DNA from: Auricularia sp. M13
Lineage: Eukaryota > Basidiomycota > Agaricomycetes > Auriculariales > Auriculariaceae
DNA length: 64,000 bases
Reading direction: 5' to 3'
Assembly: GCA_037042915.1 (NCBI GenBank)
Contig: CM073194.1
Span: 2,108,001 to 2,172,000, forward strand
The notes under the pieces were generated by a model that worked only from the letters and a program-made list of their open reading frames with translations, had not been told where the DNA came from and did no database searches. The translations under genes and the position numbers were made by a program. Shown one piece after another: positions 4,267-50,817 of the stretch; positions within the stretch are counted from its first letter, which is position 1, and every line of letters begins with the position of its first letter.

Positions 4267-5150
4267 CGCAGGATGGCAGCTGTTACCGTGCCAGCCAGGC
4301 TAAGTAAGGAACGTGCAATTTGACTATTTAGCGGTCATTGGTCGTCGGCCCGCTTTGGAAGCACGCTCATGTGGGAAGAAGACGAGACCCGTCTTGGGCT
4401 AGGAAAGGCCTGAAGCTGTGGGGTCAAGCAGTGAAGCTATACTATATAGTCACGTGCCACATCAGCATGCGGTGCGGCCCGAAAGCAGAGTGTTGCCAGC
4501 GAAATCCGAGTCTAGCAGGTGAGCTTGAAGCGTAGGTCCTGGTCGCTGCACGATCTCGAGACCCGTGATGAAAGAAGAGGAGCAAGCGAACAAACACCGG
4601 GATCCGGGTCCACGCTTGGACGGTCCTCCGTCGCGCACGTACGGTACAAATCCGAGTCAACACTGTACAAATCCGAGCCAGCGCATCGCTCTGGGAACAG
4701 TCTGAGAGTCTCATATTTCTTCAAAATCTCAGTCTGAGAGTCTCATATTTTTGCAAAACCTCATTCTCAGTCTGAGTGACACCACCCAGCAAGACCGAGG
4801 ACTCTCAGTCCCTCATGGACCCGGTGATCTCTGTCTCACCGTGAGCTGCGTCAGCGTCATCCTTCCACCATGGCATGACTCACTACCAGTGTAACTTAGC
4901 ACACGAAGCCAAGCTGTGCCCCAGCCCAATTCAATCAAAAATCAGTACCACTGGCACTGGCAGTCATGTCATGGGCGGCGGCAGCTTCGACTTCTGCCAA
5001 TGGCAGCGGTCAAGCAGCTATACGCGCTGAATCAGATATCGAAGCGCCGCGGATTCTAACTTGTACTTAGGACGTCCCTGACTCCTGCAAATGCAGTGTT
5101 GTACTCAGTGTAATCTAGCCGACAACGGCGGCGGCTCGAGATTACTGTAC
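4267..5150. other. Non-coding upstream region of the GH27-like gene, with a short tandem duplication
   Basis: No convincing gene is seen. Around 4702-4790 a unit of about 35 bases (AGTCTGAGAGTCTCATATTT...) occurs twice, followed by a third partial copy. A TATATAG box on the minus strand near 4440 is too far from the ATG to assign with confidence. Confidence 0.5.
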
Positions 5151-5154
5151 GACT

Positions 5155-5355
5155 GGTGGATTACGGATTACGGACTGGCGGATTACGGATGGAGTGGCGC
5201 ATTACGGACTGGCGGACTGGCGCATTACGGCGGCGTAGATCTAGAATCCAGATTACGGCGCACATACTGACTGGCGGACTGACGGATTACGGACTGGATT
5301 ACGGATGGCGGAGTGGCGGATTACGGACTGGATTACGGCGCTGGCGGACTGGATG
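5155..5355. repeat. Degenerate minisatellite of GGATTACGGACTGGCGGA-like units
   Basis: About 200 bases are built from mixed GGATTACGG and ACTGGCGGA words in irregular order. Several near-copies of ATTACGGACTGGCGGA occur. ORFs crossing it only translate the repeat. Confidence 0.8.
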
Positions 5356-36333: not shown

Positions 36334-39300
36334 ATGTCGACGACGACGACGAACACGACTGCGATTGAACCGGGCATGAAAGCACCCATGCTGCAGGCGA
36401 ATGGCGGCAACTGGTTCACCTGGAGAGACCGTATCGAGCTCCAGCTGAACCGTCGCAATCTCGGTCACCTCCTCCGGCCGACGCACATCATCCCGCCCGA
36501 TCCCGAGGAAGCTACGGACTTCGACTGGGACGATATCAAAGCCGACAAGCAGAAGTTGGCGGTGTATCGAGCTGAGGAAGCCACATACCTCAAGTGGCAA
36601 GCGGAGAACTCGAGTGCGTTACTCCACATCGTGTCAGGGCTACCGGACAATGTTGGCGGAACGGCGATGCGCAAGAAGATCGTCGGCGCGGCCTGGATCT
36701 GGCTTGTTCGCGAGTTCCAGGAGAAGGGCGATGCCTTTGCGCAAGAAGTTCGCCGTCAGTTTGAGGCTAAGCGCTGCCAGGCGAACGGCGATCTGCGTGC
36801 TCACCTCGAGGAGATGGAGGTCCTCAAACAGCAGTATGATGCAGCTGCCGAAGATGCAATGCTCGAGAGCGAGTACTCGCGCACCGTTCTCGCGTTGCTG
36901 CCGGATTACTACCGGAAGCAGGTCGCCAACATTCGGGCCAACGCCACAGCCCTCAGTCTCCCCGCGCCAAAAGCCGAGGCGCTCCTCCGCGCGGTCCGTA
37001 TAGAGTACGACCGCTTGCAAGTCGAGAACCAGTCCAAGTCGAAGAAGTCGGCCGACGACGTAGCGTTGGCCGCCGACGCGAAGAAGACCGAGCCGAAGAA
37101 GCGGAAATTCGACATTTCCAGGGTCAAATGCTACGGCTGTGGAGACAAGGGTCATTTCGCGAAGGATAAGAAGTGCGACCCGGCGAAGAAGGCAGCTTAC
37201 GAGGCGTCAAAGCCGCAGAAGGCGGCGACGGCGAGCACTCCGGCGACGTCTGACAAGGCACCAGCGCAGGCGGCGTGCGCCAAGTCACCGGTGCTGGCTT
37301 TCGCAGCACGCGCCGGCGCAACACTGTGCCTGCCGATCCCGGGCACGCAATGTGTCGCAGATGGCGATGACCCCTCCACGTGGCTTGACGGTCTGTGGGA
37401 CGACGACGACGTTCAGCAGATTGACGATGCACGCGACGTAACTGGCGTACCGCTGCGTGCGCTTGCAGTGGCCGAGGGTGACGACACGCGGAACACGTCC
37501 GAGATTGTTGACTCGGGCGCAAGCAGGCATATGTCTTCGCTGGGGAGCCGCTTCGTATCGCTGCAGCAGATCCCTCCGCACCCTATCGTAGCTGCTGAGG
37601 GCGTGACATTCCACGCGACGGCGCGTGGAGAGTATCTGTTGAAGTTACCGCAGGAAGACGGTGGTCAACGTGACATCATTCTCCGCGACACGCTCTACGC
37701 ACGAGCGCTGCAAGGCACCCTTGTCTCAGTGTCTGGAATCGACAAGGCCGATGGAGAGGTCCGGTTCTCCGGCGGCACGTGCAAAATCTACGACGTGAAG
37801 CGCCGCATCGTTGGTGTTGTTCCGCAGACTGGCGGCCTGTATCAAATTCAGCGCGAATCGAACGAGGGCGCGCATGCGCACTTTGCGTATGTGTCCGCTA
37901 AAAGACCGCTCACCTGGATGGAGCTACACCGGGTTCTGGGACACGTCTCGCCGACAGCGGCGAAGACGCAGTATCTTCGCGGCGGGTTCAAGGGCGTTGA
38001 GGTCGACGAGCAGTCCGAAATCTTTGACTGCGAGTCATGCACCATGGGCAAACTGCGCGCTGCACAGATACCGAAGGAGCGCGAGGGGCCGCGCTCCACG
38101 GTGTTCGGCGAGTGGTGGTATTCGGATATCTGGGGGCCAGCTCAAGTCGAGACGGCGGGCCGTAAGCGTTATGCGGATATCTACACGGACGACGCCACTC
38201 ACTGGCACGAGCTGTTTCTCTACCGCACGAAAGACGAGGCGGAGGATACCATCATCGAGTTCGACGCGTGGCTCGAGACGCAGTTCGGTGTACGTCTCAA
38301 GCGTTGGTGCACGGACCAATCCGGCGAGTACAACACTGGCAAAGTCCAGGAGCACCTGCGTAAGCGTGGGATTGTGCACCTCCAGACGACGCATGATACG
38401 CACCAGCAAATCGGCATCGCGGAACGATTCAACCGCACGCTGTTTGAGCGCGTGCGGGCCGCGCTGCACTCGTCAGGCCTACCGAAGAAACTCTGGGGAG
38501 AGTGTGCTCACCACCAGGTTTGGCTGCTGAACTCGTTGGGCACGCGGTCCAACCCAGGTGGCAAGTCGCCGCATGAGATGCGGTTCGGTCGGCCGCGTGA
38601 CATCTCTGGCGTGCCAGAGTGGGGGGCACCCTGCTACGTGTTCGACTTGGAGACCGGGAAGCTGGAGCCGAACGCGGAGCGCGTCTATTGGCTGGGATTT
38701 GACGCGCAGACACCAACAAAGGGGCACCGGCTGTACTCGAAGAAAGGGCAGAAGGTCCGCATTGAGCCCGCAGTCAAGTTCCTCCGCGTCGAGCCCGACC
38801 GCGAGGAGGAGGTGTTCCTCACTGATGTGGGCGACCTGTTCTGGGACGACGTCGATAGGCAGGCCGCAGATCCTGGGGAGGATATGGATGCCGATCCTGC
38901 TGATGGATCTGCGCCCGGCGGTCCCAATCGTGGCCTTCCGGCGCCGCGCACGCCGGAACGCGCCCAAGCGCCGGCTCCCGTCCCTGATGCGCCACAGCGA
39001 CCGCGCGCGCCCGCAGAACGCTTCGCGCAGAGGCTAGCTGACTTTGATGAGGGCAACATCGTCGAAGGCGCCCGCATTCGCAAACCGTCTCAGTACGTAC
39101 GTGACGTGCTGAGCGGAGCCGGCACGGCAGACGGCCGTCCCGGACAGCCAGCGCTCCCGAAAGGAGTTCAAGTACCGCCTGTGCAACCTGACCAAGACCG
39201 CGCTGTATTCGCGAACGCGCAAGAGCTGTACGGCTACGAGGACTTCGCCGTTGCCTTCGTCACGCAGCACGCGGACCCCGAGTTGCTAGAGCCGACGTCG

Positions 39301-40878
39301 CATGCTGAGGCTCTCGCGCGTCCAGACGCGGACCGTTGGATCGAGGCCAAGCAGGCGGAGCGTGCCTCGCTCAAGGCCAAGGGCGTCTACGAGTGGGTGA
39401 AACGCGAGGACGTCGCAGCGAAGGGCAGGAAGCCGGTTGGTAGCAAGTGGGTCTACCGCGCGAAGCGAGACGCTGCGGGCCACCTCGTTCGCTACAAGGC
39501 GCGGCTCGTCGCGCAGGGCTTCTCCACGGTCCCAGGAATCGACTTCACGGACACGACTTCGCCGGTCGTGACGCCTGAGACCCTGCGGTTTATGATATCG
39601 CTCGGCGCGCTGTTCGACTGGGAATTGCACCAAATCGACTTCGACACTGCCTTTCTCAACGGGAAGCTCGACAAAGAAGTTTTTCTCGAGCCTCCGCCGG
39701 GTTACGACGACGACCCGCTGCACCCCGTTCGACTGTTTTGCTGGCTGCTGTTGAAGGCTCTGTACGGCTTGAAGGACGCCGGCAGGATTTGGTATCTCAC
39801 GCTCGTCACGGCGATGCTCGAGCTGGGTTTCACGCGCTCGCAGGCAGATATGGGCCTGTTCATTCTGAAGTTGCAGCATACTCTACTCCTCGTCGCCGTC
39901 AGCACCGACGACTGCTTGTGCGCCTCCCCGAACGTCGAGATCATCGCTATCTTCAAGGAGGAGATCGGCGCGATGTACGAGATCAAGGATCTCGGCGAGG
40001 CGCAGTGGCTACTCGGGGTGGAGATCATACGCGACCGACCGAAGCGCACCGCGGCGCTCAGCCAGCGCGCGTACGTGGATACTATCCTGCGGCGTTACGG
40101 GATGGACGACTGCCGCACGTACTCGACGCCGATGGATGTCAACGCGCGCCTGACGCCCGATGACTCGCCGAAGACGGGGGAGGAACACGCGAGGATGCGC
40201 GGATTCCCTTACCGCGAGATGGTCGGCGCGTTGAACTACTTGGTCCGCTGGACTCGTCCCGACATGGCCCTAACTGTCAGCCTGCTATCGCAGTTTTTGG
40301 AGACGCCGGGACCTGCGCACGTCGCGGCGCTGCGCCGCGCTTACGGCTATGTTCGCCTCACACGCGATATGAGGCTCGTTCTCGGCGACACTGGCAGCAA
40401 CGACGGGCTCGTTGGCTTTACGGACGCCGACGGCATGACGCAGTGGCACCGTCGCGCGATGTCGGGCTACGTGTTCCGCTGGAACAGCGGGACGATCGCC
40501 TGGTCTACGAAGAAGCAAGAACTCGTCTCGCTATCTACAACGGAGGCCGAGTACGTCGCGCAGACGCACGCGGCGAAGCAGGCGATGTGGTTGCGCACAC
40601 TCGTCGGCGAGGTGCTCGACAAGCTGCCGGACCCCATGACGATCTTCGCGGACAACGACGGGGCCATCAAGCTCACGCGCGGTTATCAGTTCCACGTGCG
40701 CACGAAGCATATCGATATTCGCTACCACTTTATTCGCTACCTCGTTGAAGCAGGAGACATTCGGCTCGTCTACTGCAAGACCGCGGATATGCTCGCGGAC
40801 ATCATGACCAAGCCGCTCCCGTCGATCAAAGTCAAGCACTTCGCGTCGCGCCTAGGGCTGTATGACGCTTTGGCTTGA
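36334..40878 (+). CDS. Ty1/copia gag-pol polyprotein
   Basis: A single ORF of 1514 codons in the copia order: gag with a zinc-knuckle region (about residues 265-282), aspartic protease (about 390), integrase with its pre-integrase zinc region and core (about 525-755), reverse transcriptase (about 1025-1280) and RNase H (about 1360-1510). The order integrase before reverse transcriptase separates it from Ty3/gypsy. It looks whole and is the only such ORF in the window; the copia element at 25.8-31.1 kb is a different family member with unlike LTRs. Confidence 0.95.
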   Translation: MSTTTTNTTAIEPGMKAPMLQANGGNWFTWRDRIELQLNRRNLGHLLRPTHIIPPDPEEATDFDWDDIKADKQKLAVYRAEEATYLKWQAENSSALLHIVSGLPDNVGGTAMRKKIVGAAWIWLVREFQEKGDAFAQEVRRQFEAKRCQANGDLRAHLEEMEVLKQQYDAAAEDAMLESEYSRTVLALLPDYYRKQVANIRANATALSLPAPKAEALLRAVRIEYDRLQVENQSKSKKSADDVALAADAKKTEPKKRKFDISRVKCYGCGDKGHFAKDKKCDPAKKAAYEASKPQKAATASTPATSDKAPAQAACAKSPVLAFAARAGATLCLPIPGTQCVADGDDPSTWLDGLWDDDDVQQIDDARDVTGVPLRALAVAEGDDTRNTSEIVDSGASRHMSSLGSRFVSLQQIPPHPIVAAEGVTFHATARGEYLLKLPQEDGGQRDIILRDTLYARALQGTLVSVSGIDKADGEVRFSGGTCKIYDVKRRIVGVVPQTGGLYQIQRESNEGAHAHFAYVSAKRPLTWMELHRVLGHVSPTAAKTQYLRGGFKGVEVDEQSEIFDCESCTMGKLRAAQIPKEREGPRSTVFGEWWYSDIWGPAQVETAGRKRYADIYTDDATHWHELFLYRTKDEAEDTIIEFDAWLETQFGVRLKRWCTDQSGEYNTGKVQEHLRKRGIVHLQTTHDTHQQIGIAERFNRTLFERVRAALHSSGLPKKLWGECAHHQVWLLNSLGTRSNPGGKSPHEMRFGRPRDISGVPEWGAPCYVFDLETGKLEPNAERVYWLGFDAQTPTKGHRLYSKKGQKVRIEPAVKFLRVEPDREEEVFLTDVGDLFWDDVDRQAADPGEDMDADPADGSAPGGPNRGLPAPRTPERAQAPAPVPDAPQRPRAPAERFAQRLADFDEGNIVEGARIRKPSQYVRDVLSGAGTADGRPGQPALPKGVQVPPVQPDQDRAVFANAQELYGYEDFAVAFVTQHADPELLEPTSHAEALARPDADRWIEAKQAERASLKAKGVYEWVKREDVAAKGRKPVGSKWVYRAKRDAAGHLVRYKARLVAQGFSTVPGIDFTDTTSPVVTPETLRFMISLGALFDWELHQIDFDTAFLNGKLDKEVFLEPPPGYDDDPLHPVRLFCWLLLKALYGLKDAGRIWYLTLVTAMLELGFTRSQADMGLFILKLQHTLLLVAVSTDDCLCASPNVEIIAIFKEEIGAMYEIKDLGEAQWLLGVEIIRDRPKRTAALSQRAYVDTILRRYGMDDCRTYSTPMDVNARLTPDDSPKTGEEHARMRGFPYREMVGALNYLVRWTRPDMALTVSLLSQFLETPGPAHVAALRRAYGYVRLTRDMRLVLGDTGSNDGLVGFTDADGMTQWHRRAMSGYVFRWNSGTIAWSTKKQELVSLSTTEAEYVAQTHAAKQAMWLRTLVGEVLDKLPDPMTIFADNDGAIKLTRGYQFHVRTKHIDIRYHFIRYLVEAGDIRLVYCKTADMLADIMTKPLPSIKVKHFASRLGLYDALA

Positions 40879-41397
40879 GGGGAGGATGTGGAAATATGAG
40901 GTTTCGGTTTCCTTTTGTCTGTGTCCCTGATGATGACCAGTATGATCACGACCGTTTAGGATTAGTCTCATTTTCACGATCTCCATAGTTTCGGTCCGCT
41001 CACGACTAGTCCCTCAGTCTTTGCCTTCCACCGCACTGTACTGAGGTATGCATCCCGATGTTCTCTCACAGTCTGTTTGTACTCATGACGTGTCCTGTAG
41101 ACTTCTGTTCCTTCTCAGGTAGTCTACAATCTATTAGTCTTTGCCTTCCACCGCACTGTACTGAGACTTCTGTTCCTTCTCAGGTCCCCGAACAGAGCGT
41201 CTATTTTCTACACATAGTGTGCAACGAGATGAGCGGCAGCGACAAGCGCTGGGCGACGGCAGCGTCGACGACGGGTGGCAGGAGCGGCGGGCAAGTTCGA
41301 CGGGCTGGGCGGGAGCCGCGGGACGGCCGGATTCGGTGTTCGGTTCAGGCGGAGCCTGGAACCGCTTCGACTCGATCTGTATCCCGGAAAGAGAAAT

Positions 41398-43083
41398 ATG
41401 GTTCTAGGAAGCCCTACGTAAGTCCCTCGATGTACATAGAAGCTCATACTTATTAGGACAGGCTTTCTGGCATACCGCTGGATGTACTGTGCCTCGTACG
41501 AGACTGTCTAGTTGAAACCGAGCTGTGTCAACATACCATCAGCGTTTCACGTCTGGAGGAAAGCTCGGCGGTCGACTGGAGAGCACCTGCCGGACAGCAT
41601 CATCCGCTAGACGCGCTATCCCGGGTCTCGCACTTGATCAGGGCTGTCTGCTGCCCGGCAATGTTTTCTCGTATCAAGCTTTCTGAACGCCGCCCCATCT
41701 TGCCACCCCGCGCCATTCTGTCTTACGTATGGTAAGAAATCGAAGCTTTGTTTCTCTTCGGGCTGACCTAGCGCTTCAGCATGCTCTGGATTACCTTTCG
41801 AGACTTGGACAATCCGAGATTTGACTATCGTAGCATGCTACGCAGCATGACTCGCCTACGCACCATCTTCTGGCAACCTGCAGAGGCATCTTCATTGTCT
41901 GCGGAACGCAACATCACACTTGCGCTTTCTTCGCCCACTTTGACTACGTTCATGACGAGGAACTTCCAGCTTAAAGGTGTGATGTCTCCCGTGACTGCCA
42001 CACGCCTTCAAGCGTTGGACGTGTTGCAAAGCTGGCGAGACCTCAATACGGTCAGAGTTGGCGAAATCGAGGCCGAAAAGCAGTTTCTAGAATCCTTGAT
42101 TGCTCAGCTCGTGCCGCAACTCCAGGTCCTCCGAATACCCGGCGAGTCTTGTCGTCTGTCGTTCCTCGCAGCAACTACGTGGCCGCACCTGCGCGAGCTT
42201 GTCATCCGGGGCGGTGCTCCCAAAACGGACATATCTTTCTGCCGGTTGTTCTCGGTCATGCCGCGCTTGCGCATTCTCGCTCTCGCAATCGTACCGTCGC
42301 TGGTTCTCCATCCGGCCAATTCTGCATGGGGTCATGACATTAGACCTAGTTTGCAGAGGCTCACGATCACCGATGTCCTGCCTCACGAAGGGATATTTTC
42401 CCACTTGTCTGGAGAGCTCACCGAGCTATCGTTGCGCGACCAACCGCGCTACTATCGCAGGCGACTGGTCAACGGAAATGATGACTCAAAACCAATTTTA
42501 GCATGCCAGGCTGCGCTGCGCATCATTCAAACTTTTGCACTCGGCGGTGCTAGCCTGCGCCGTTTGGAGATCGTTGTCCGCGAGGATGGCACGGAGATGC
42601 AGCTCTTGGCGCTCATAGCCAAGTCATGTCCAAACTTGACGTTCTTTGAACTACATCAATACCGCGCCGATGATATTTCTTTCATGCAGCTGCCGTGCCA
42701 TGAAGTTGATCTGCACATCGTGGGTCCTATTTTAACCCACCTGTTGAAGATCAACTCTGACAAGCCCTTTGCAGGACGCGGTTGCTAACGCCCTTTCGCC
42801 GCTGCGTCATCTTCGCGTGCTCCGCCTGAACCTCGATTTCGGTCTTTACTCTCAGAGACATCCAAGTCTTACCTTTCAAGTGTGGGACCCAGTTTTGACG
42901 ACCCAGGCGGACGTGATCGCTCACATTTTGCACTGGCTCACCATCATCTCGTTTCTGACGACGAACATGGTCGGTCCAGCAGCATGGAGTACGTGGTATC
43001 CCCGCCGCTCTCCGTCCGGCGAGCTCAGGGTGGAGTACGACTCTTGGACTGATAACTCCATCATCGATCAGCGATGGTTTTAG
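41398..43083 (+). CDS. F-box/LRR-like protein, family B copy 1
   Basis: Four exons (41398-41417, 41462-41731, 41780-42719, 42775-43083) join in frame to 512 residues. The first exon is only 20 bases (MVLGSP). The F-box follows at once (LSGIPLDVLCLVRDCLVE...), and DALSRVSHLIRAVCCPAMF fits its second half. The body has leucine-rich stretches (WPHLRELVIRGGAPKTD, SGELTELSLRDQPRYYRRR, CPNLTFFELHQYRADD). The likely role is substrate receptor in an SCF ubiquitin ligase; the substrate is unknown. The 3' UTR contains AAATAAATGTGTCCA, conserved in copy B2. The copia element and its host segment sit immediately upstream, so the promoter has been rearranged relative to B2. Confidence 0.8.
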
Positions 43084-44069
43084 GATATTTGCCTTTTGTT
43101 GGCTCACTTTCAGCATTTAATCACGCCATCTCGAGTAGCATTTCAGAAAGCGATTCCTATTGTACAGCGTGAGGCGACAAAATAAATGTGTCCAACTCCT
43201 ACTTGCCGAAGGCGATGCCTTCAAGGTCGCTGTAATGAACTTTATCAGCGCAAGCAAGGGGTACGCACTTGTTAAGCGCCCGGAAGCAACCGGGAGGGGG
43301 AGGGTCCCCCGAAGATGCCGTTAAGGAATTTTTTTATTATCTTGAATTATTTTTCAGGGATGGTGCAGAGACTTGGTTGGGATTTTAGGAGGCCATATAC
43401 CTACCTCAAAGCATTCCATGTGGGTAAAGCAGCTGGATTCACAGAATAGCACTGAGCAGTCCGTTTTGGGCACATTGCCTCCGATGCCGGAATCAAACCG
43501 GACGGCCGTGTACCATGGATTGCAAGTTAATCATCTAACAGAGTGGCTGGGGTAATCTCAGCAAGAGTATTTGATAATCAGGTCGCTATTGGAGAGAGAT
43601 AACATTGGCTTGGTGACATACAGCAGGCCAGGGGCAGTACTAATCCTCTTCAAACGCTCTCGGCAGGTTTGCTGAGTGAAGTCACGCCCAAACAATAGTT
43701 CTTATCCGTCTCAGCTCTCGCATAAATGGTCTCATTAATATCTGCAGTCAATAAGTGGTGCCAATTCCCTGCTATTACGGTGTGTACCACCTCACAGGTG
43801 AGCCTCGGGATCAATAAGGCCTCCCAAATAGGGAACTGTCACCTGTCAGGTCACGTGACAGGGGGGAGGGGGTCACTCAAGAGGCGTTATGGAGTTTTTC
43901 GGGACGGTGCAGGAATTTTTTTTTTGCCACCCCCTTGAGCGCAAGGCGATTGCGTCTGTCGAATTCAAACACGCGCACTGGCAGGATAATTGTCTGCTGG
44001 CCGGCTGTCGTCACGAGCGTCGTAGGGAGAAGTTCGTACTATAATGCTGAAACATCGTCGTTGCCGGAG
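43084..44069. other. Intergenic, no gene seen
   Basis: Two degenerate related stretches occur (about 43285-43360 and 43860-43925) sharing GGGAGGGGG, GCCGTTA-like and CGG-T-GTGCAG words. A hairpin-prone CCTGTCAGGTCACGTGACAGG lies near 43840. No coherent coding pattern. Confidence 0.4.
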
Positions 44070-44400
44070 CGTGAGGAACGGGAAATTCGTGCGATACGCT
44101 GGCAGCGCGAGGAGGAAACACGAGGAACGGAAGGTCCGTGCTCTACGTTAACAAACGCGAGGAACGGGGTGGCCGTGCTCTACGTTGGTCGCGAGGCAGA
44201 GTGCTCAGCGTCGAAAGCGCGAGGAACGGCGAACCGTGCTCTACGCTGTAAAAAACGCGAGGAACAGCCGTGTTGTGCTCTACGTTACAGACCGCGAGGA
44301 GCGCTGGCAGCGTGCTCTACGGTGGCAAGCGCGAGGAACGACCGAGTCGTGCTCTACGCCAGTATATACGCGAGGAACGGCCAAGCCGTGCTCTACGTCA
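44070..44400. repeat. Array of about nine 37-base units, each a small hairpin with covarying stem
   Basis: Units start (GAGGA) at 44073, 44122, 44159, 44221, 44259, 44296, 44333 and 44372, with degenerate ones at 44109 and 44193. The framework is CGCGAGGA-N5-N3-N5-GCTCTACG. The two N5 arms are complementary although their sequence changes from unit to unit: ACGGA/TCCGT, ACAGC/GTTGT, GCGCT/AGCGT, ACGAC/GTCGT, ACGGC/GCCGT. Unit spacing is not a multiple of three, so it is not a coding repeat. Function unknown. Confidence 0.8.
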
Positions 44401-44719
44401 GTGGTTCGAGGCCAGCCGCTAGTATAGCAAGCTTCCGAGAGTGTTCCAAAAACAGGCGGGAGGCGGGAGGGTCGACAGTGAGACATGAGTGTGCGGGGCC
44501 TGGATGTTTTGCCGCGCGTGCCGCGCATGTGGTGCGCAGACAATATTTCTACAGAAACATAGCCAATTCCGTTAATTTCTAGAGCAAATTGTAGAGTCAA
44601 GTGTGGGCCACAAGTTACAGATGCAGGGTAAGCCAAATAGGCAATAGAAAGATGTTAGGAAAATTATCAGTATTCCGGGATGTATAGTTCCGTGGACAGC
44701 CACGCGCGGCACTGCGCGG

Positions 44720-46732
44720 CACTTGTGCGGCACTGTGCAGCACCCTACCACCACACCAGCCCAGCACCCCAACAACACATTATGGACATATCTCATGGTT
44801 TGGATGTGCACCCCCACACCCTCTGACCATGCTATACTCAATGGTTTCAAGCAGGGAGGTTGCTAGATGCCTGGGCACCAATGCGCGGCATGCGCGGCAC
44901 TTCTCCTGCTGGGTTTGAAATGTGCGGCACCCCTTGCTGCTTCAACCACAGCTTCTGTAGTTCTGAAACTTGTCCAGAGCATCATATTAGACTTATATGA
45001 TCCACATATAGTCAAGAAATAGTGTTGGATTGTGTTAGTTCATGAGATGTGGTTGAGGGGTAAAACTGCCCCTTTACCACCCAAGCCCAGTGCACACCCA
45101 AAACACCATTTAGGCATCCACTATGGACTGGACTAGCTGGGACCAAGCTATGGAGCATGTCCAGACTGTTTGTAACACTACAGATGCTGCTGAGGGCACT
45201 GGGTGCACATGCGCGGCACGCGCGGCACTTCTACTGCTGGGTTTGAAATGCGCGGCACTCTCTCCTGCTCCAACCAAAGCTCCTGTAGTTCTGGAACTTG
45301 TTAATTCCATGTTATTACACTACTTTGTTGACAATGGTACAGCAGAAAGTCTCTAGGGTACCATGGATAACTCCAAATTGTCGAGGGGCAAAACAGCCAC
45401 TTTAACACCCGAGTCTGAGGCACACCCAAGACACCTTGTTGGCAACAAGATAAGGACTGGAATAGCTGAGATAGTACTATGGATCAAGTCTAGACTGTTT
45501 GGAAGACTTCAGGTCTTGTTGTGGGTGCAGGGTGCACATGTGCAGCACGTGCGGCACTTCTCCCACTGAGTTTGAAATGCGGGGCACTCTCCTCAACTCT
45601 CCCTAGGGCCTCTCTAGTTCTGAAACCTGTTCAGGTCATGCTATTGTGATTAAGGGGGGCTAAGGACACCACGAGAAGTGCATGCTATGAGTATTCAGGG
45701 GTGGAATACTAGGCACAGACCTGCCCACCAACTTGGCTGCCAGTACAAGAGCAGGCCAACTGATTCTGCACTTACTCTCACTATATCCCTGGCCCCCCTT
45801 AATCACAATAGCATGACCTGAACAGGTTTCAGAACTAGAGAGGCCCTAGGGAGAGTTGAGGAGAGTGCCCCGCATTTCAAACTCAGTGGGAGAAGTGCCG
45901 CACGTGCTGCACATGTGCACCCTGCACCCACAACAAGACCTGAAGTCTTCCAAACAGTCTAGACTTGATCCATAGTACTATCTCAGCTATTCCAGTCCTT
46001 ATCTTGTTGCCAACAAGGTGTCTTGGGTGTGCCTCAGACTCGGGTGTTAAAGTGGCTGTTTTGCCCCTCGACAATTTGGAGTTATCCATGGTACCCTAGA
46101 GACTTTCTGCTGTACCATTGTCAACAAAGTAGTGTAATAACATGGAATTAACAAGTTCCAGAACTACAGGAGCTTTGGTTGGAGCAGGAGAGAGTGCCGC
46201 GCATTTCAAACCCAGCAGTAGAAGTGCCGCGCGTGCCGCGCATGTGCACCCAGTGCCCTCAGCAGCATCTGTAGTGTTACAAACAGTCTGGACATGCTCC
46301 ATAGCTTGGTCCCAGCTAGTCCAGTCCATAGTGGATGCCTAAATGGTGTTTTGGGTGTGCACTGGGCTTGGGTGGTAAAGGGGCAGTTTTACCCCTCAAC
46401 CACATCTCATGAACTAACACAATCCAACACTATTTCTTGACTATATGTGGATCATATAAGTCTAATATGATGCTCTGGACAAGTTTCAGAACTACAGAAG
46501 CTGTGGTTGAAGCAGCAAGGGGTGCCGCACATTTCAAACCCAGCAGGAGAAGTGCCGCGCATGCCGCGCATTGGTGCCCAGGCATCTAGCAACCTCCCTG
46601 CTTGAAACCATTGAGTATAGCATGGTCAGAGGGTGTGGGGGTGCACATCCAAACCATGAGATATGTCCATAATGTGTTGTTGGGGTGCTGGGCTGGTGTG
46701 GTGGTAGGGTGCTGCACAGTGCCGCACAAGTG
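44720..46732. repeat. 2.0-kb palindrome: 941-base arms around a 131-base spacer
   Basis: 44720-45660 is the reverse complement of 45792-46732. Every matching pair checked has coordinates adding to 91452, so there are no indels, and the small ORFs in the two arms translate identically. The spacer is 45661-45791. Each arm contains three diverged tandem units of about 326 bases, each with GCGCGGCA and CTGGGTTTGAAATG words (about 44880, 45207 and 45530). Further out, GTTTTGCCGCGCGTGC at about 44505 and its inverted copy ending at 46934 may mark older ends. No protein is recognised. Possible foldback element or recent inverted duplication. Confidence 0.9.
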
Positions 46733-47071
46733 GCTGTACACTGCTGCGCCACAGCCACATACTTTTTTTTGATAGTCCTCCCAATACTTGAGGAACTCTT
46801 TCCCTCACATGGTGTCTGGAGAGGGCTCAGTTTTCCCTGCTGATTGATCTTTCAAAATCTGCTTTAGCTGCAATAATCATGGAGATATGGCCTGCCCACC
46901 ACTGCGCGGCACATGCGCAGCACGCGCGGCAAAACCTCCTCGCCCGAGTGTGCGAGCAGAGTCTCCTCTGCCAGACTGATGGTGAGGAGTCTGTTTGGAG
47001 CGTAGCGGAATGACCCGGCCGAATGGCCCCTCTTCCAACCACCGCGACGTGCAATGCGCCATTCCACCCAC

Positions 47072-48811
47072 ATGTCGCTGCCAGCGTCCACTGACCGCTG
47101 GAAAAGGAAAGTCAATATTTGCCTAGTAGAAATGTATACTAATGTAGCACTCAGCCTCGCCAATCTCCCTCACGACCTCTTGACTGCCATTTGTGACCTG
47201 CTGGATGTCAAACTGGTGTTCCCCATCACGACGGTTGCACGATTCGAGAGGCATACAGAAGAGGGCTTCCACCGCTTACCGAAATACAAGGCAACACTCA
47301 TTGCTCTCTCAATGACCTGCAAACTGCTGCGACAAATATGTAGCCCTTACATCTTCAGGGCTAGCATGCTGGACGTCGAGCCGGATTTTGCATGCTTACC
47401 TGCTCCTGTTACTGTTTACACACGGTGTGTTATTCGTGCTCGGTAATGCCAGACTCATAGTGTTCTAGGCGTTTGTATATCGGTGGGGTGCAGATGGACG
47501 CCGAGCAGTTTCGAGCCGCGGTCAAATCGTTGTGCCAGCTCCGAGAAGCTTATGTCCATCAATCCGGTATATTTATACCTGCACTGCTCGAGCATCCTAC
47601 TCTGCAGATCCTGAGCGTGCGAAATGCTCACAACGCAACCACGGCGCCGCTTGGAACCATCGCCGCGCCACTTCGGGTGTTGCGAATGTATTTCCCTCGC
47701 CGTCTCCAGCCGCCACCTCGCTCCCGCGATGACATTCCGCATGAAAAGCGGTGGTTAAGGACCGTTTTACGCCACGTCCGGCACACGCTGGAAGAGTTAT
47801 TCATTCCAGGCGAGTCTACCGACGTTTCCTTCCTCGCGTCACAGTCGTGGCCTTGCTTGCGCGAGCTGGTCATCTTTGGTGAATGTCCCGATCTCAACGT
47901 ACCGCTACTGGACCTGTTCGGCATGCTTCCGCGGCTCCGCGCGTTTACCTTTGCGCCTGTCCACGCCAGCCATCGCCCTCCTGTAATCATCTGGCCGCGC
48001 AAGCACCTGACGACCTCCTATCCAGACATCTCAGGTCTTCGACGGATTTCCATCTCCTCGCCGAGCGAGGACGATGAGATCTTCATTCACCTTCCCATTG
48101 AACTGCACGAACTCGCCCTGCGCGACACACCACGCTTCTATCGGAGACACCGCTTCCCTCCTGGTGGCGCTTCAGGGACGGCCTTCTTCTCTGGAATCCT
48201 ATCGTGCAGTTCTGCTCTTCGCATCTTCCACAAATTGCACGCGCCCAGTCTCGTCAGCCTTGAACTCGTTGTAATCGAAGATCCTCGCGAGCTGGAGATG
48301 CTATCCTACATCTCCGCGGCGTGTCCCAAGCTGGCATCGCTTGAATTGCACAGGTACCGCGACGCCGCTGATTGGCACGCCGTGCACAACGCCCCGCCCA
48401 CAATTTCACTGGTGCGTATTTATTCCCCGAGCGTAACGTCCACTTGACCGTCATGCACAGACTAGGCTAGCGGCAGCTCTGAGCGAATTCAAAGCATTGA
48501 GCACTTTACGGCTGAACTTCGAGTTCCCGAAAGCCGAGCTCCAGATCGAAGGCTTCTACCCATCATTGGATCACGCCGAGCAGCTTATTGAGCGCGCAGC
48601 GCGCACGGTGGCCGAGCATCTTCCCTGGCTGGACACGATATGCATGCTCGGCTGGCGTGGATCAGCGACACTCCGCGGGTGGACGATGTGGGCTGTCAAC
48701 GAGCGGGATGGTGCGCTGACGCTCGACCACGTTGATTTCTACTGGTGAGTCGATCGAGTCACCTGTTCACTTCAAGACAACGGCTGACCATGCTTCAGGC
48801 TGGATATGTGA
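47072..48811 (+). CDS. F-box/LRR-like protein, family A copy 2
   Basis: Four exons (47072-47424, 47469-48411, 48461-48744, 48799-48811) give 530 residues. The ATG at 47072 (MSLPASTDRWKRK) is preferred because it is the first start shared with copy A4; an ATG at 47054 is also in frame. The F-box is LANLPHDLLTAICDLLDVK, about residues 29-47. The body has the family's leucine-rich stretches (HTLEELFIPGESTDVSFL, LPRLRAFTFAPVHASHRPP, CPKLASLELHRYRDAADW). The last exon is 13 bases encoding LDM-stop; its 5' splice site overlaps an in-frame TGA. Intact and probably functional. The 2-kb palindrome ends 340 bases upstream. Confidence 0.8.
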
Positions 48812-49052
48812 AGAAGAGCGTAACTTATCCTTGTGTGAACCATTTCACCATGAATAGTAGCCATAAGCCCGAGTCTGTATGTATGTGCTGGTCTGCGCTT
48901 CCGTATGCGAGCAGCTTTTGAGGATGTCGACGCATTGACCAGAACCGGACACGAGCGTGACACAGGTCAAGCCAGCGGGTTCGGGAGTCGCCGATACTGG
49001 CTTCTCCTCGAACCACGTAGCCGCCAACATCGTGTGCCAAGGTACCCGTCAC

Positions 49053-50817
49053 ATGATGGAGCGAGCCATTGAACGCGATACCAGGTATGTGTCTATGCTG
49101 TTCACGAAATCTTGCGTCGTCTTGAGCCGGAGCAGCAGCAGCCTATCGAATCTACCGCATGATGTCCTCCATAGGATCTTCGCTCGGCTCAAGGACAAAG
49201 CATGGCTTCCACTTACTAGCGTGTCTCGCTTCGAGGACCACTTTAATTCCAGAATACTTGGTGGCGGATTTTCGGAAACATCTCTCCTAAGCCTCTCTGT
49301 GACCTGCAAAGCCCTTCGACGCGCGTGCCTGCCGCGAATGTTCGCATTCGTCCATCTTTACGACCAGGCACTGGACGAATCGTTACGGTCTATCTTCGTA
49401 TATACAAGGTATTTATATTCGATTTCCATCTTTGAACCGACTAACATCCTGACAGGCGCGTCTTGGTGGACGGCACCCCTGAACAATTTTCGGAATTCAT
49501 GGGTTTAGCGCCGAATATCCGCGAGACTTACTTCAGGCAATCCGCCCCACCCCTGTCGCCAGTCTTGCAGTCGGAGACCCACGAGGTCATCGCCGTTTCG
49601 AAAGCTCGCTCGTTTCAGCATTGTCTTCCTCTGGTGCCGGTTCGTGCTCCATTGCGTGTCTTTCGCATGTGTGTACCCGACCGTCATTTTCGCCCTGGCT
49701 CGGAGGTCGATCTATCAGGAGAGAAGATGTGGCTGGAAGCCTTCCTACCCCGAGTCAGGTCCAGCCTCGAAATCCTCGTTTTGCGCACGCAGTCTACCCG
49801 ATTTTCCCTCCTTGCAGAGGCGTCCTGGCCGCATCTCCGCGAATTGGTGCTGTACGGCGTTTGTCCCCCGGTGGATGTCTCGCTCCTGCGCATCTTTGAG
49901 ATGATGCCCAATCTACGCGCGTTTTCCTGTACCGCCGCTGTGCGCTACAGCCAGCCTCCGCTAATCATGTGGCCGGAGAACGCGCCTGAAACGCCCGACA
50001 TCTCACGGTTGCGTCGCTTCGCCATGTCATCTCCTTCTTCAAAGGACCGCATTTTTGCGCATCTACCAGCAGAGCTTGAGGAACTCTCGCTTCGAGATGC
50101 ACCGCGCTTCTATGAGCGTAGGCGGTATCCAGGCTTCGGGCATAGCATCGACGGGAACTTCAGACCTGGCGTACCGACATGCGGCGAGGCTCTCTCGATC
50201 TTCCAAGCTTTGCGCTGCTCAGCATTGGTGCATCTCGAGCTCGTAGTCATCGAGGACCTCCGCGAATTGGACCTGCTGGCGCACATCGCGGGCGCGTGTC
50301 CTCGGCTTGTTTTCCTCGAGTTCCACTGCTATCGCGACGTCTCAGAATACGATGACCTCCTGGATCACCCGCTGCTGTTCAGTCTTGTGAGTCTTTCCCG
50401 CCTCTTGAGCCCACATTTCCTGCGACTGACTTGTGTCCTATTTTACCCAGAACGACCTCGGACGTGCACTCTCGGCATTCACGGCGCTGCGCGATCTACG
50501 GTTGAACATCGACACGCCCTGGGTCCAGGCCACCCCGTCCGTGTATTGCGAGCCCCAGTCTTATGATCGGGTTGACGCTGCCAAGGCAATCGCTCAGATT
50601 GTCGCCGAGGCCGTTCCGTGGTTGCATACCATCACAGTCCTCACTCGCGACAGCACGAGACTTCCGGAATGGGTCCTATGGTCCGTTCGCGATCTCGGCG
50701 ACGTAGTCGAGCTGGAACGGCTCAAAATTAAGGATGCTGGGGATTACTACAAGACGTGAGCTGTCCTCGCGCTCGTCAGCTGGAATGATCTGATCTTGCC
50801 GCAGCATAGACGTCTAG
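49053..50817 (+). CDS. F-box/LRR-like protein, divergent family C
   Basis: Four exons (49053-49408, 49456-50386, 50451-50755, 50805-50817) join in frame to 534 residues, the same intron pattern as family A but with much lower identity. The F-box is LSNLPHDVLHRIFARLKDK. Leucine-rich stretches include WPHLRELVLYGVCPPVDVS, LPAELEELSLRDAPRFYERR and CPRLVFLEFHCYRDVSEYD. The terminal exon is again 13 bases (IDV-stop). The start could be 49053 or 49056. It lies head-to-tail after A2, pointing to an old tandem duplication. Confidence 0.75.

What the first reader, a model, noticed from the sequence alone, without database searches (positions are those of the whole stretch)
44070..44400. Tandem hairpin array with compensatory base changes in the stems
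Eight of about nine 37-base units keep the frame GAGGA ... GCTCTACG, while the two 5-base arms between them change together: ACGGA/TCCGT, ACGGG/TTCGT (with G-U pairs), ACAGC/GTTGT, GCGCT/AGCGT, ACGAC/GTCGT, ACGGC/GCCGT. Two further units keep four pairs (ACGG/CCGT). Outer GAG and CTC could also pair. Random decay of a minisatellite should break the stems, so paired changes suggest selection on a folded RNA or single-strand DNA structure, or a mutational process that copies one arm onto the other. It is not in frame, so it is not a protein repeat. I know no described element of this form.
Basis: seen in the sequence. Interest (0 to 1): 0.85.

Follow-up and report, generated by a model that had tools for sequence, protein, structure and literature searches.

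The report
Hairpin array in fungal retrotransposon leader
A row of small hairpins whose stems change in matched pairs is real, recurs at twelve places found in this fungal genome, and in nine of them belongs to the leader (5' untranslated region) of a LINE-type jumping gene or its short derivatives, perhaps as repeated docking sites in its RNA; the copy in this window is a stranded relic.

Summary
At 44070-44397 there are nine units: seven intact, one with a decayed 3' flank, one without a stem. Compensatory stem changes replicate outside the window: with each distinct arm pair of the intact units counted once, 33 of 40 stem positions are Watson-Crick paired against 26.4 +/- 2.2 when arms are re-dealt (p = 0.003; with degenerate units p = 0.0003 or lower).

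The array is not a free-standing new element. Twelve loci found in this 52-Mb genome carry it. Nine lie in a non-LTR retrotransposon (LINE) or short derivatives. There it occupies the 5' UTR, read on the window's minus strand: in L046 about 87 nt, array, about 375 nt, ORF1, ORF2 (endonuclease-RNase H-RT), (CTAC)n tail. All four LINE copies found that reach the start of ORF1 carry it. The window copy and one duplicated pair are orphans without detected LINE sequence.

Best reading: short RNA hairpins in the LINE transcript, bound by an element or host protein. A tandem internal promoter, as in mouse L1, and an arm-copying mutational process remain open. Strand evidence is weak, and the whole window array folds no better than shuffles. 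New variant of a known kind.

The parts
44070..44098 (-). hairpin unit with decayed flank (GCGATACG); arms ACGGG/TTCGT (written on +)
   Evidence: (15.4 bits); strand given is the LINE sense strand inferred from other loci
44119..44147 (-). hairpin unit, arms ACGGA/TCCGT (written on +)
   Evidence: (43.5 bits)
44156..44184 (-). hairpin unit, 4-bp stem ACGG/CCGT
   Evidence: (44.1 bits)
44190..44210 (-). stemless remnant of a unit (CGCGAGGCAGAGTGCTCAGCG)
   Evidence: read; not found by the model
44218..44245 (-). hairpin unit, 4-bp stem ACGG/CCGT with 4-nt loop
   Evidence: (44.3 bits)
44256..44284 (-). hairpin unit, arms ACAGC/GTTGT
   Evidence: (40.9 bits)
44293..44321 (-). hairpin unit, arms GCGCT/AGCGT
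   Evidence: (40.5 bits)
44330..44358 (-). hairpin unit, arms ACGAC/GTCGT
   Evidence: (46.9 bits)
44369..44397 (-). hairpin unit, arms ACGGC/GCCGT
   Evidence: (47.8 bits)
44029..44495 (.). outer limits of the array-bearing remnant: left of it the sequence matches a paralogous site (43938-44028, 80%), right of it begins another repeated element (from 44496)

Best explanation
The array is the 5'-UTR hairpin array of a fungal LINE (non-LTR retrotransposon), in the window as a relic cut off from the rest of the element. Shown: in nine of the 12 loci found the array sits in a LINE or a short LINE-derived element, in one fixed orientation. In L046 it lies about 87 nt inside the 5' end and about 375 nt before ORF1. 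Insertions with different flanks share the same 5' end upstream of the array. Between two LINE copies the flank motifs and arms are more conserved than loops, spacers and the rest of the UTR. Inferred: the array is copied through the LINE's RNA. In the sense RNA each unit, 5'-CGUAGAGC-(A/G)CGGN-loop-NCCG(U/C)-(U/C)CCUCGCG-3', forms a small hairpin with conserved unpaired bases beside the stem. A protein (the element's ORF1p or ORF2p, or a host factor) recognises the shape and those bases rather than the stem letters. Repeating the site four to eight times gives multivalent binding that marks full-length element RNA for assembly or integration. Short non-autonomous copies keep the array-bearing 5' part and the 3' tail, as expected if both are needed in cis. 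The LINE origin of the arrays is the firm part (I would put it near 0.9); the confidence below is for the RNA-binding mechanism.
For: Twelve arrays. Endonuclease, RNase H and RT on the strand opposite to the array's + orientation, ORF1 before them with a long predicted helix. (GGTA)n on the array's + strand, i.e. a (CTAC)n tail, in eight of the 12 loci, imperfect in L049. ORF1 search (8 candidates scored, a lower bound): 6 loci, 4 reach residue 1, and all 4 (L042, L046, L047, L048) have the array. Same 5' end with different flanks in L046/L048 and, within about 10 nt, in L043/L044/L045/L049. Covariation. Exchanging the 3' arms among 35 units weakens predicted folding on either strand (+ -8.43 vs -7.30 +/- 0.20; - -7.76 vs -6.70 +/- 0.19 kcal/mol; 0 of 300 as low). 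L046 against L047: flank motifs 61/64 identical, arms 27/32, loops with fifth pair 10/18, spacers 57/78, UTR between array and ORF1 257/374. Wobbles in the 4-bp stems of 35 units: 8 A.C (G.U on the LINE-sense strand) against 3 G.T on the + strand.
Against: The whole window array folds no better than shuffles on either strand (z +1.06 and +1.17). Single window units are only weakly stable on the sense strand (7 tested, z -1.14 to +0.09), and in 2 of the 7 the best fold is not the proposed stem. The wobble count that points to the sense strand is small, and units are related to each other. Predicted energies are slightly better on the antisense strand. Two of the covariation measures do not exceed shuffles. 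L047's first unit has a G-A mismatch in its stem. No transcript, binding or activity data exist here. Three loci (window, L039, L040, the last two a duplicated pair) show no LINE sequence next to the array; in the window 41 bp separate the array from paralogous flank. A LINE relative at C11:1320-1326k, whose probable ORF1 start and about 1 kb beyond it lie in L059, has no model match there. No clear target-site duplication was found around the short copies. The C-terminal part of ORF1 was predicted with low confidence from five sequences, so no RNA-binding domain is shown.
Confidence: 0.5

Rival explanations
1. Tandem internal promoter or enhancer at DNA level: the units are transcription-factor sites, as mouse L1 monomers are, and the inverted arms are part of a dyad site. 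Short copies keep them because they need a promoter.
For: Same layout as mouse L1 (tandem units, then a tether, then ORF1; abstract and outline of PMC9022269). Short copies keep the array. No excess folding of the whole array.
Against: A factor that reads letters should conserve the arms; instead the arms change together while staying complementary. Units are 27-32 nt, much shorter than mouse monomers (monomer length recalled).
Confidence: 0.25
2. Mutational upkeep: template switching within each short inverted repeat copies one arm onto the other, so complementarity persists without selection on the structure; only the flanks are selected.
For: The process is described for RNA hairpins (PMC8794818; passages seen). 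Units with broken flanks still have largely paired arms, e.g. L039 5110 and L041 5120.
Against: The G just outside the 5' arm region and the G opposite it are the same in all 30 aligned units, an unpaired combination that arm-copying would tend to erase. In the four corresponding unit pairs of L046 and L047 the outermost stem pair differs by one base (A.C, A.C, G.T, A.C in L046 against G-C, A-T, A-T, A-T in L047), as in stepwise change; four pairs are few.
Confidence: 0.15
3. A stand-alone mobile hairpin array that LINEs acquired: the orphan copies moved as arrays on their own.
For: The window array has paralogous flank within 41 bp on its left and no detected LINE body; L039/L040 also lack detected LINE sequence.
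Against: Only two independent orphan loci, one of them inside a longer duplicated stretch; the window site is a nest of other repeats, so later deletion is easy. The array's own ends were not defined, so terminal repeats and a duplication for the array alone remain unexamined.
Confidence: 0.07
4. Chance or pure minisatellite decay without any role.
For: Tandem arrays are common (general knowledge).
Against: Covariation replicated on units not used to notice it; unequal conservation of flank, arm, loop and spacer; presence in LINE copies only about 66-75% identical.
Confidence: 0.03

Closest known systems
Mouse LINE-1 5' UTR tandem monomers (PMC9022269: abstract and outline seen)
   Same: Tandem units at the 5' end of a LINE, separated from ORF1 by a tether.
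   Different: Units here are 27-32 nt hairpins with covarying stems. Mouse monomers are promoter units, longer (length recalled), and not known to me for covarying hairpins; promoter activity untested here.
R2 5' RNA structure that binds the R2 protein (recalled; PMC11331408 seen only in the search listing)
   Same: A folded 5' RNA region of a non-LTR retrotransposon read by the element's protein.
   Different: R2 has a single complex structure and a different endonuclease type (recalled); here there are many small repeated hairpins in a LINE with an Exo_endo_phos endonuclease.
Fungal LINE groups Tad, L1, Deceiver (named for Laccaria bicolor in PMC3411680, passages seen; Inkcap as a clade is recalled)
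   Same: The carrier is a fungal LINE.
   Different: Which group the carrier belongs to was not determined here; its RNase H lies between endonuclease and RT.
Allomyces mitochondrial double-hairpin elements (recalled; the listing showed no relevant paper)
   Same: Short repeated hairpins whose stems keep pairing while letters change.
   Different: Those are mitochondrial and free-standing (recalled); these are nuclear and mostly inside LINE-type elements.

Membership tests
Non-LTR retrotransposon (LINE), for the carrier element | RT with endonuclease in one ORF | tested here: met
   Exo_endo_phos, RNase_H and RVT_1 in P0001 from L046, all above Pfam cut-offs
Non-LTR retrotransposon (LINE), for the carrier element | ORF1 upstream with coiled coil | tested here: met
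   456-aa ORF1; one predicted helix 111-251, residues 121-210 with block pLDDT above 90; that it is a coiled coil is inferred
Non-LTR retrotransposon (LINE), for the carrier element | 3' tail of simple repeat | tested here: met
   (GGTA)n at L050:7824, L052:7587 and L053:7397 (array orientation) beyond ORF2, and at the short copies
Non-LTR retrotransposon (LINE), for the carrier element | 5'-truncated copies | tested here: inconclusive
   C11:3112958-3113761 matches ORF1 only from residue 189, with ORF2 following; the stretch before it was not read
Non-LTR retrotransposon (LINE), for the carrier element | target-site duplication | tested here: inconclusive
   best shared flank words 5-7 nt in four short copies, none adjacent to both ends
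Non-LTR retrotransposon (LINE), for the window array itself | LINE body or tail next to the array | tested here: not met
   no match to the three LINE protein pieces in the window and no tail in 39001-49900; flanks are other repeats
Structured RNA with covarying helix | compensatory changes above shuffled and slid controls | tested here: met
   covariation score, paired cells and cells changed on both sides exceed all 500 shuffles; distinct arm pairs; two count measures do not exceed shuffles
Structured RNA with covarying helix | folding energy of the array below shuffles | tested here: not met
   window array z +1.06 and +1.17; other arrays not folded whole
Known Rfam family (ribozymes included) | match to any of 4227 families | tested here: not met
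   no match in window 43500-45000 (E up to 5), L046 4400-5300 and L043 4700-5950 (E up to 2)
Mouse-L1-type monomer promoter | promoter activity of the units | not testable with these tools
   needs a reporter assay

The most novel reading that the evidence does not exclude
A LINE family whose RNA carries a multivalent array of small hairpins, recognised by shape and flank rather than stem sequence, acting as a packaging or integration signal shared with its short parasites: a retrotransposon counterpart of hairpin arrays used as protein tags, able also to be left behind or spread as array-only relics.
Probability: 0.35. Interest if true: 0.75.

Novelty: new variant of a known kind. Interest (0 to 1): 0.58.

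Why it matters
How LINE proteins tell their own RNA from other RNA, and what 5' UTRs do besides drive transcription, are open questions (general knowledge). A natural array of similar hairpins with varying stems gives a clean, testable signal: the same site is offered many times with different stem letters, and short copies show which parts the element keeps. Of eight answered searches of the held paper library, three were aimed at such arrays (40, 61, 75); judged from titles and abstract starts, none listed a description of one. Most subscription papers are not in that library.

Tried and rejected
Rejected: coding repeat (period 37; the open frame 43935-44582 is taken as incidental). tRNA gene: none found in the window. 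Known ribozyme or other Rfam family. DNA-transposon subterminal repeats: my first guess (note), dropped when ORF1, ORF2 and the 3' tail were found.

Led nowhere or against generality: other LINE families. The ORF2 search listed 48 matches with 43 of 174 candidates scored; I read stretches before ORF2 in four further LINE loci (L057-L060) and none gave a model match. In L057 and L058 no LINE 5' UTR was recognised (truncated or not covered); L059 does reach about 1 kb beyond a probable ORF1 start, so at least one relative probably lacks this array; L060 is unclear. One match in viral contigs (L056) lies inside a polymerase-like reading frame and is taken as coincidence. Species: Coprinellus micaceus was considered from its genome size and rejected on chromosome lengths (chromosome 1 is 5.56 Mb there, 9.42 Mb here); the fungus, and that it is a basidiomycete, remain my guess. 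ORF1 structure: long helix confident, C-terminal part not, so no fold search was made. Target-site duplications not found.

Limits: only this genome could be searched for relatives; no sister fungi are held. Genome searches score only the best candidates, so 12 loci is a lower bound. Units are related to each other, so shuffles overstate significance; the distinct-arm-pair tests are a partial remedy. One search took 43 of the 73 model matches (40 distinct; the rest were copies in sister loci or matches outside arrays) and one distinct L049 unit was missed; one search recounts 62 array matches, 41 distinct, 35 intact. One search used 39 units (one out-of-register unit of L039 and the L049 unit left out). 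The model search leans towards the structure, and the pattern fixes the two outermost stem positions to R/Y and C/G; the pattern leaves the stem free. Positions for L039, L041-L045, L047, L048, L051-L054 are in array orientation (reverse complement of the stored locus). By eye, paralogous flank might run to about 44057; BLAST gives 44028.

Full report
What is in the window. Nine units lie at 44070-44397. Seven keep the frame GAGGA...GCTCTACG; the first (44070) has a decayed 3' flank and the fourth (44190) has lost its stem. The model search of the 64-kb window finds eight units; eight other matches score 15.3 bits or less, one of them about level with the decayed unit at 44070 (15.4 bits), so they are taken as chance.

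Is the pairing more than chance? Thirty distinct units, aligned, gave 93.0% paired cells against 88.5 +/- 0.9 in shuffles and a covariation score of 0.171 against 0.090 +/- 0.013, 0 of 500 as high; slid structures paired in at most 56.7% of cells and scored at most 0.103. Two measures, the number of pairs with a change on both sides and the number of further pair types, were not above shuffles. The pattern took units by their flanks with the stem left free; that fixes the two outermost stem positions. Among 35 distinct units with intact flanks, 130 of 140 outer four stem positions pair, against 119.5 +/- 1.6 with arms re-dealt. Because units descend from each other I then counted each distinct arm pair once, Watson-Crick pairs only: 39 of 48, mean 30.7, p = 0.0006 to 0.0008 for the 35 intact units. 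Outside the window: 33 of 40, mean 26.4, p = 0.003 for the 28 intact units; 40 of 48, mean 31.4, p = 0.0003 with three degenerate units added. For the window alone p = 0.033. Exchanging arms among units costs about 1.1 kcal/mol per unit on either strand. The outer GAG/CTC and CG/CG pairs hardly vary and so prove nothing.

Where else it is. DNA and pattern searches of the window's own genome (52.1 Mb, 14 contigs) give 12 array loci: the window, C1:4422k, C1:4327k, C4:4327k, C6:1533k, C8:608k, C1:1138k, C1:7341k, C5:369k, C6:723k, C8:1862k and C8:2591k. These searches score or list only part of the candidates, so 12 is a lower bound. Over the fetched loci 62 model matches lie in arrays, 41 of them distinct, 4 to 8 per array.

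What carries it. L046, L048 and L047 align with each other over 4.4-5.2 kb at 75-91%, and L042 with them at about 66% over 2.9-3.4 kb. On the strand opposite to the array's + orientation L046 encodes a 456-aa ORF1 and an ORF2 with endonuclease, RNase H and reverse transcriptase, the latter read in two pieces; the other three match these proteins. L046, L047 and L042 end in a (CTAC)n tail, while L048 loses similarity within ORF2. L043, L044, L045 and L049 are copies of about 1.1 kb with the array near one end and the tail at the other, and L041 is another short element with the same kind of tail. So nine of 12 loci are a LINE or LINE-derived, with the array in one orientation. The ORF1 search found six loci; four reach its first residue and all four have the array.

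Anatomy. In L046 the similarity to L048 ends at 5212, the array spans 4937-5125, and ORF1 starts at 4562 on the minus strand, so in LINE sense there are about 87 nt, then the array, then about 375 nt, then ORF1. L046 and L048 share the same 5' end with different flanks, and the four 1.1-kb copies share theirs within about 10 nt. Separate insertions with a common 5' end upstream of the array suggest that the array is part of the copied RNA; that is inference from how LINEs insert.

Constraint. Between L046 and L047 the flank motifs are 61/64 identical, arms 27/32, loops with the fifth pair 10/18, spacers 57/78, the UTR between array and ORF1 257/374, and the 5' end region 35/86; ORF1 DNA is about 80% identical. 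In the four corresponding unit pairs the outermost stem pair differs by one base, through A.C or G.T states; one of L047's units also has a G-A mismatch further in.

Which strand, which molecule? In the 4-bp stems of 35 units there are 8 A.C and 3 G.T on the + strand; A.C there is G.U on the LINE-sense strand, so the sense RNA is mildly favoured. Against that, unit energies are slightly better on the antisense strand, the whole window array folds no better than shuffles on either strand, and 2 of 7 window units prefer another fold on the sense strand. The hairpins would have to be small local structures, probably held by a protein.

The window copy. No LINE body or tail was detected near it. 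Positions 43255-43938 belong to a repeat with relatives elsewhere; 44496 begins another repeated element. A paralogous site on the same contig (L061) matches 43137-43254 and 43938-44028 side by side, so the 0.7-kb repeat probably inserted there, and paralogous flank runs to 41 bp from the array. The window array is therefore a remnant of at most 467 bp (44029-44495) in a nest of repeats. L039 and L040, one duplicated pair, are the other orphan.

Mechanism, and what is inferred. Shown: position, orientation, recurrence, conservation, covariation. Inferred: that the unit acts as a protein-bound RNA hairpin, that the number of units gives multivalence, and that it helps the element's RNA to be recognised. 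The main rival is a tandem internal promoter as in mouse L1, whose array-tether-ORF1 layout is the same (abstract of PMC9022269). Template switching that copies arms is a real alternative (PMC8794818, passages); constant mismatched bases beside the stem and one-step changes argue mildly against it. One LINE relative (L059) probably lacks the array, so it is a feature of this family, not of all LINEs here.

Known or new? LINE 5' UTR tandem repeats and structured LINE RNA ends (recalled) are known kinds. Three library searches aimed at covarying or tandem hairpins in non-LTR retrotransposons listed no description of such an array (listings only). Hence: new variant of a known kind.

Noticed in passing
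L046:3-3191 (minus), protein P0001: The LINE's RNase H domain (residues 357-491) lies between endonuclease (60-286) and reverse transcriptase (741-992); I recall the usual order as RNase H last.
   Followed up: partly
window 43255-43938: A repeat of about 0.7 kb with relatives at 73-96% elsewhere; a paralogous site lacking it (L061) has its two matches overlapping by 8 bp, as a target-site duplication would give.
   Followed up: partly
window 44496-46945: A repeated element with long inverted arms and similar ends (44496-44539 against 46902-46945 inverted, 86%), up to 98% identical to long copies elsewhere, so probably young.
   Followed up: no
window 36334-40878: A Copia-type LTR retrotransposon with one uninterrupted 1514-aa open frame.
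   Followed up: no
L060:1017-1173 and 1370-1456: 15-bp tandem repeats (CGATTAACGGTTGCT-like) some way before another LINE's ORF2; possibly another kind of 5' repeat.
   Followed up: no
L046:4708, also L041, L043, L044, L045, L048, L049: An exact CTGTATAGTT block (array + strand) between array and ORF1, or on the same side in short copies, in seven loci; the window has ATGTATAGTT at 44680 on the other side of its array, inside another repeat.
   Followed up: partly
L039:955-5694 (stored orientation) and L040:4408-8745: A duplicated stretch of about 4 kb (97% over 3.9 kb) on contig C1 that carries the array beside a gene I take, from recall, for a FunK1-like kinase.
   Followed up: no
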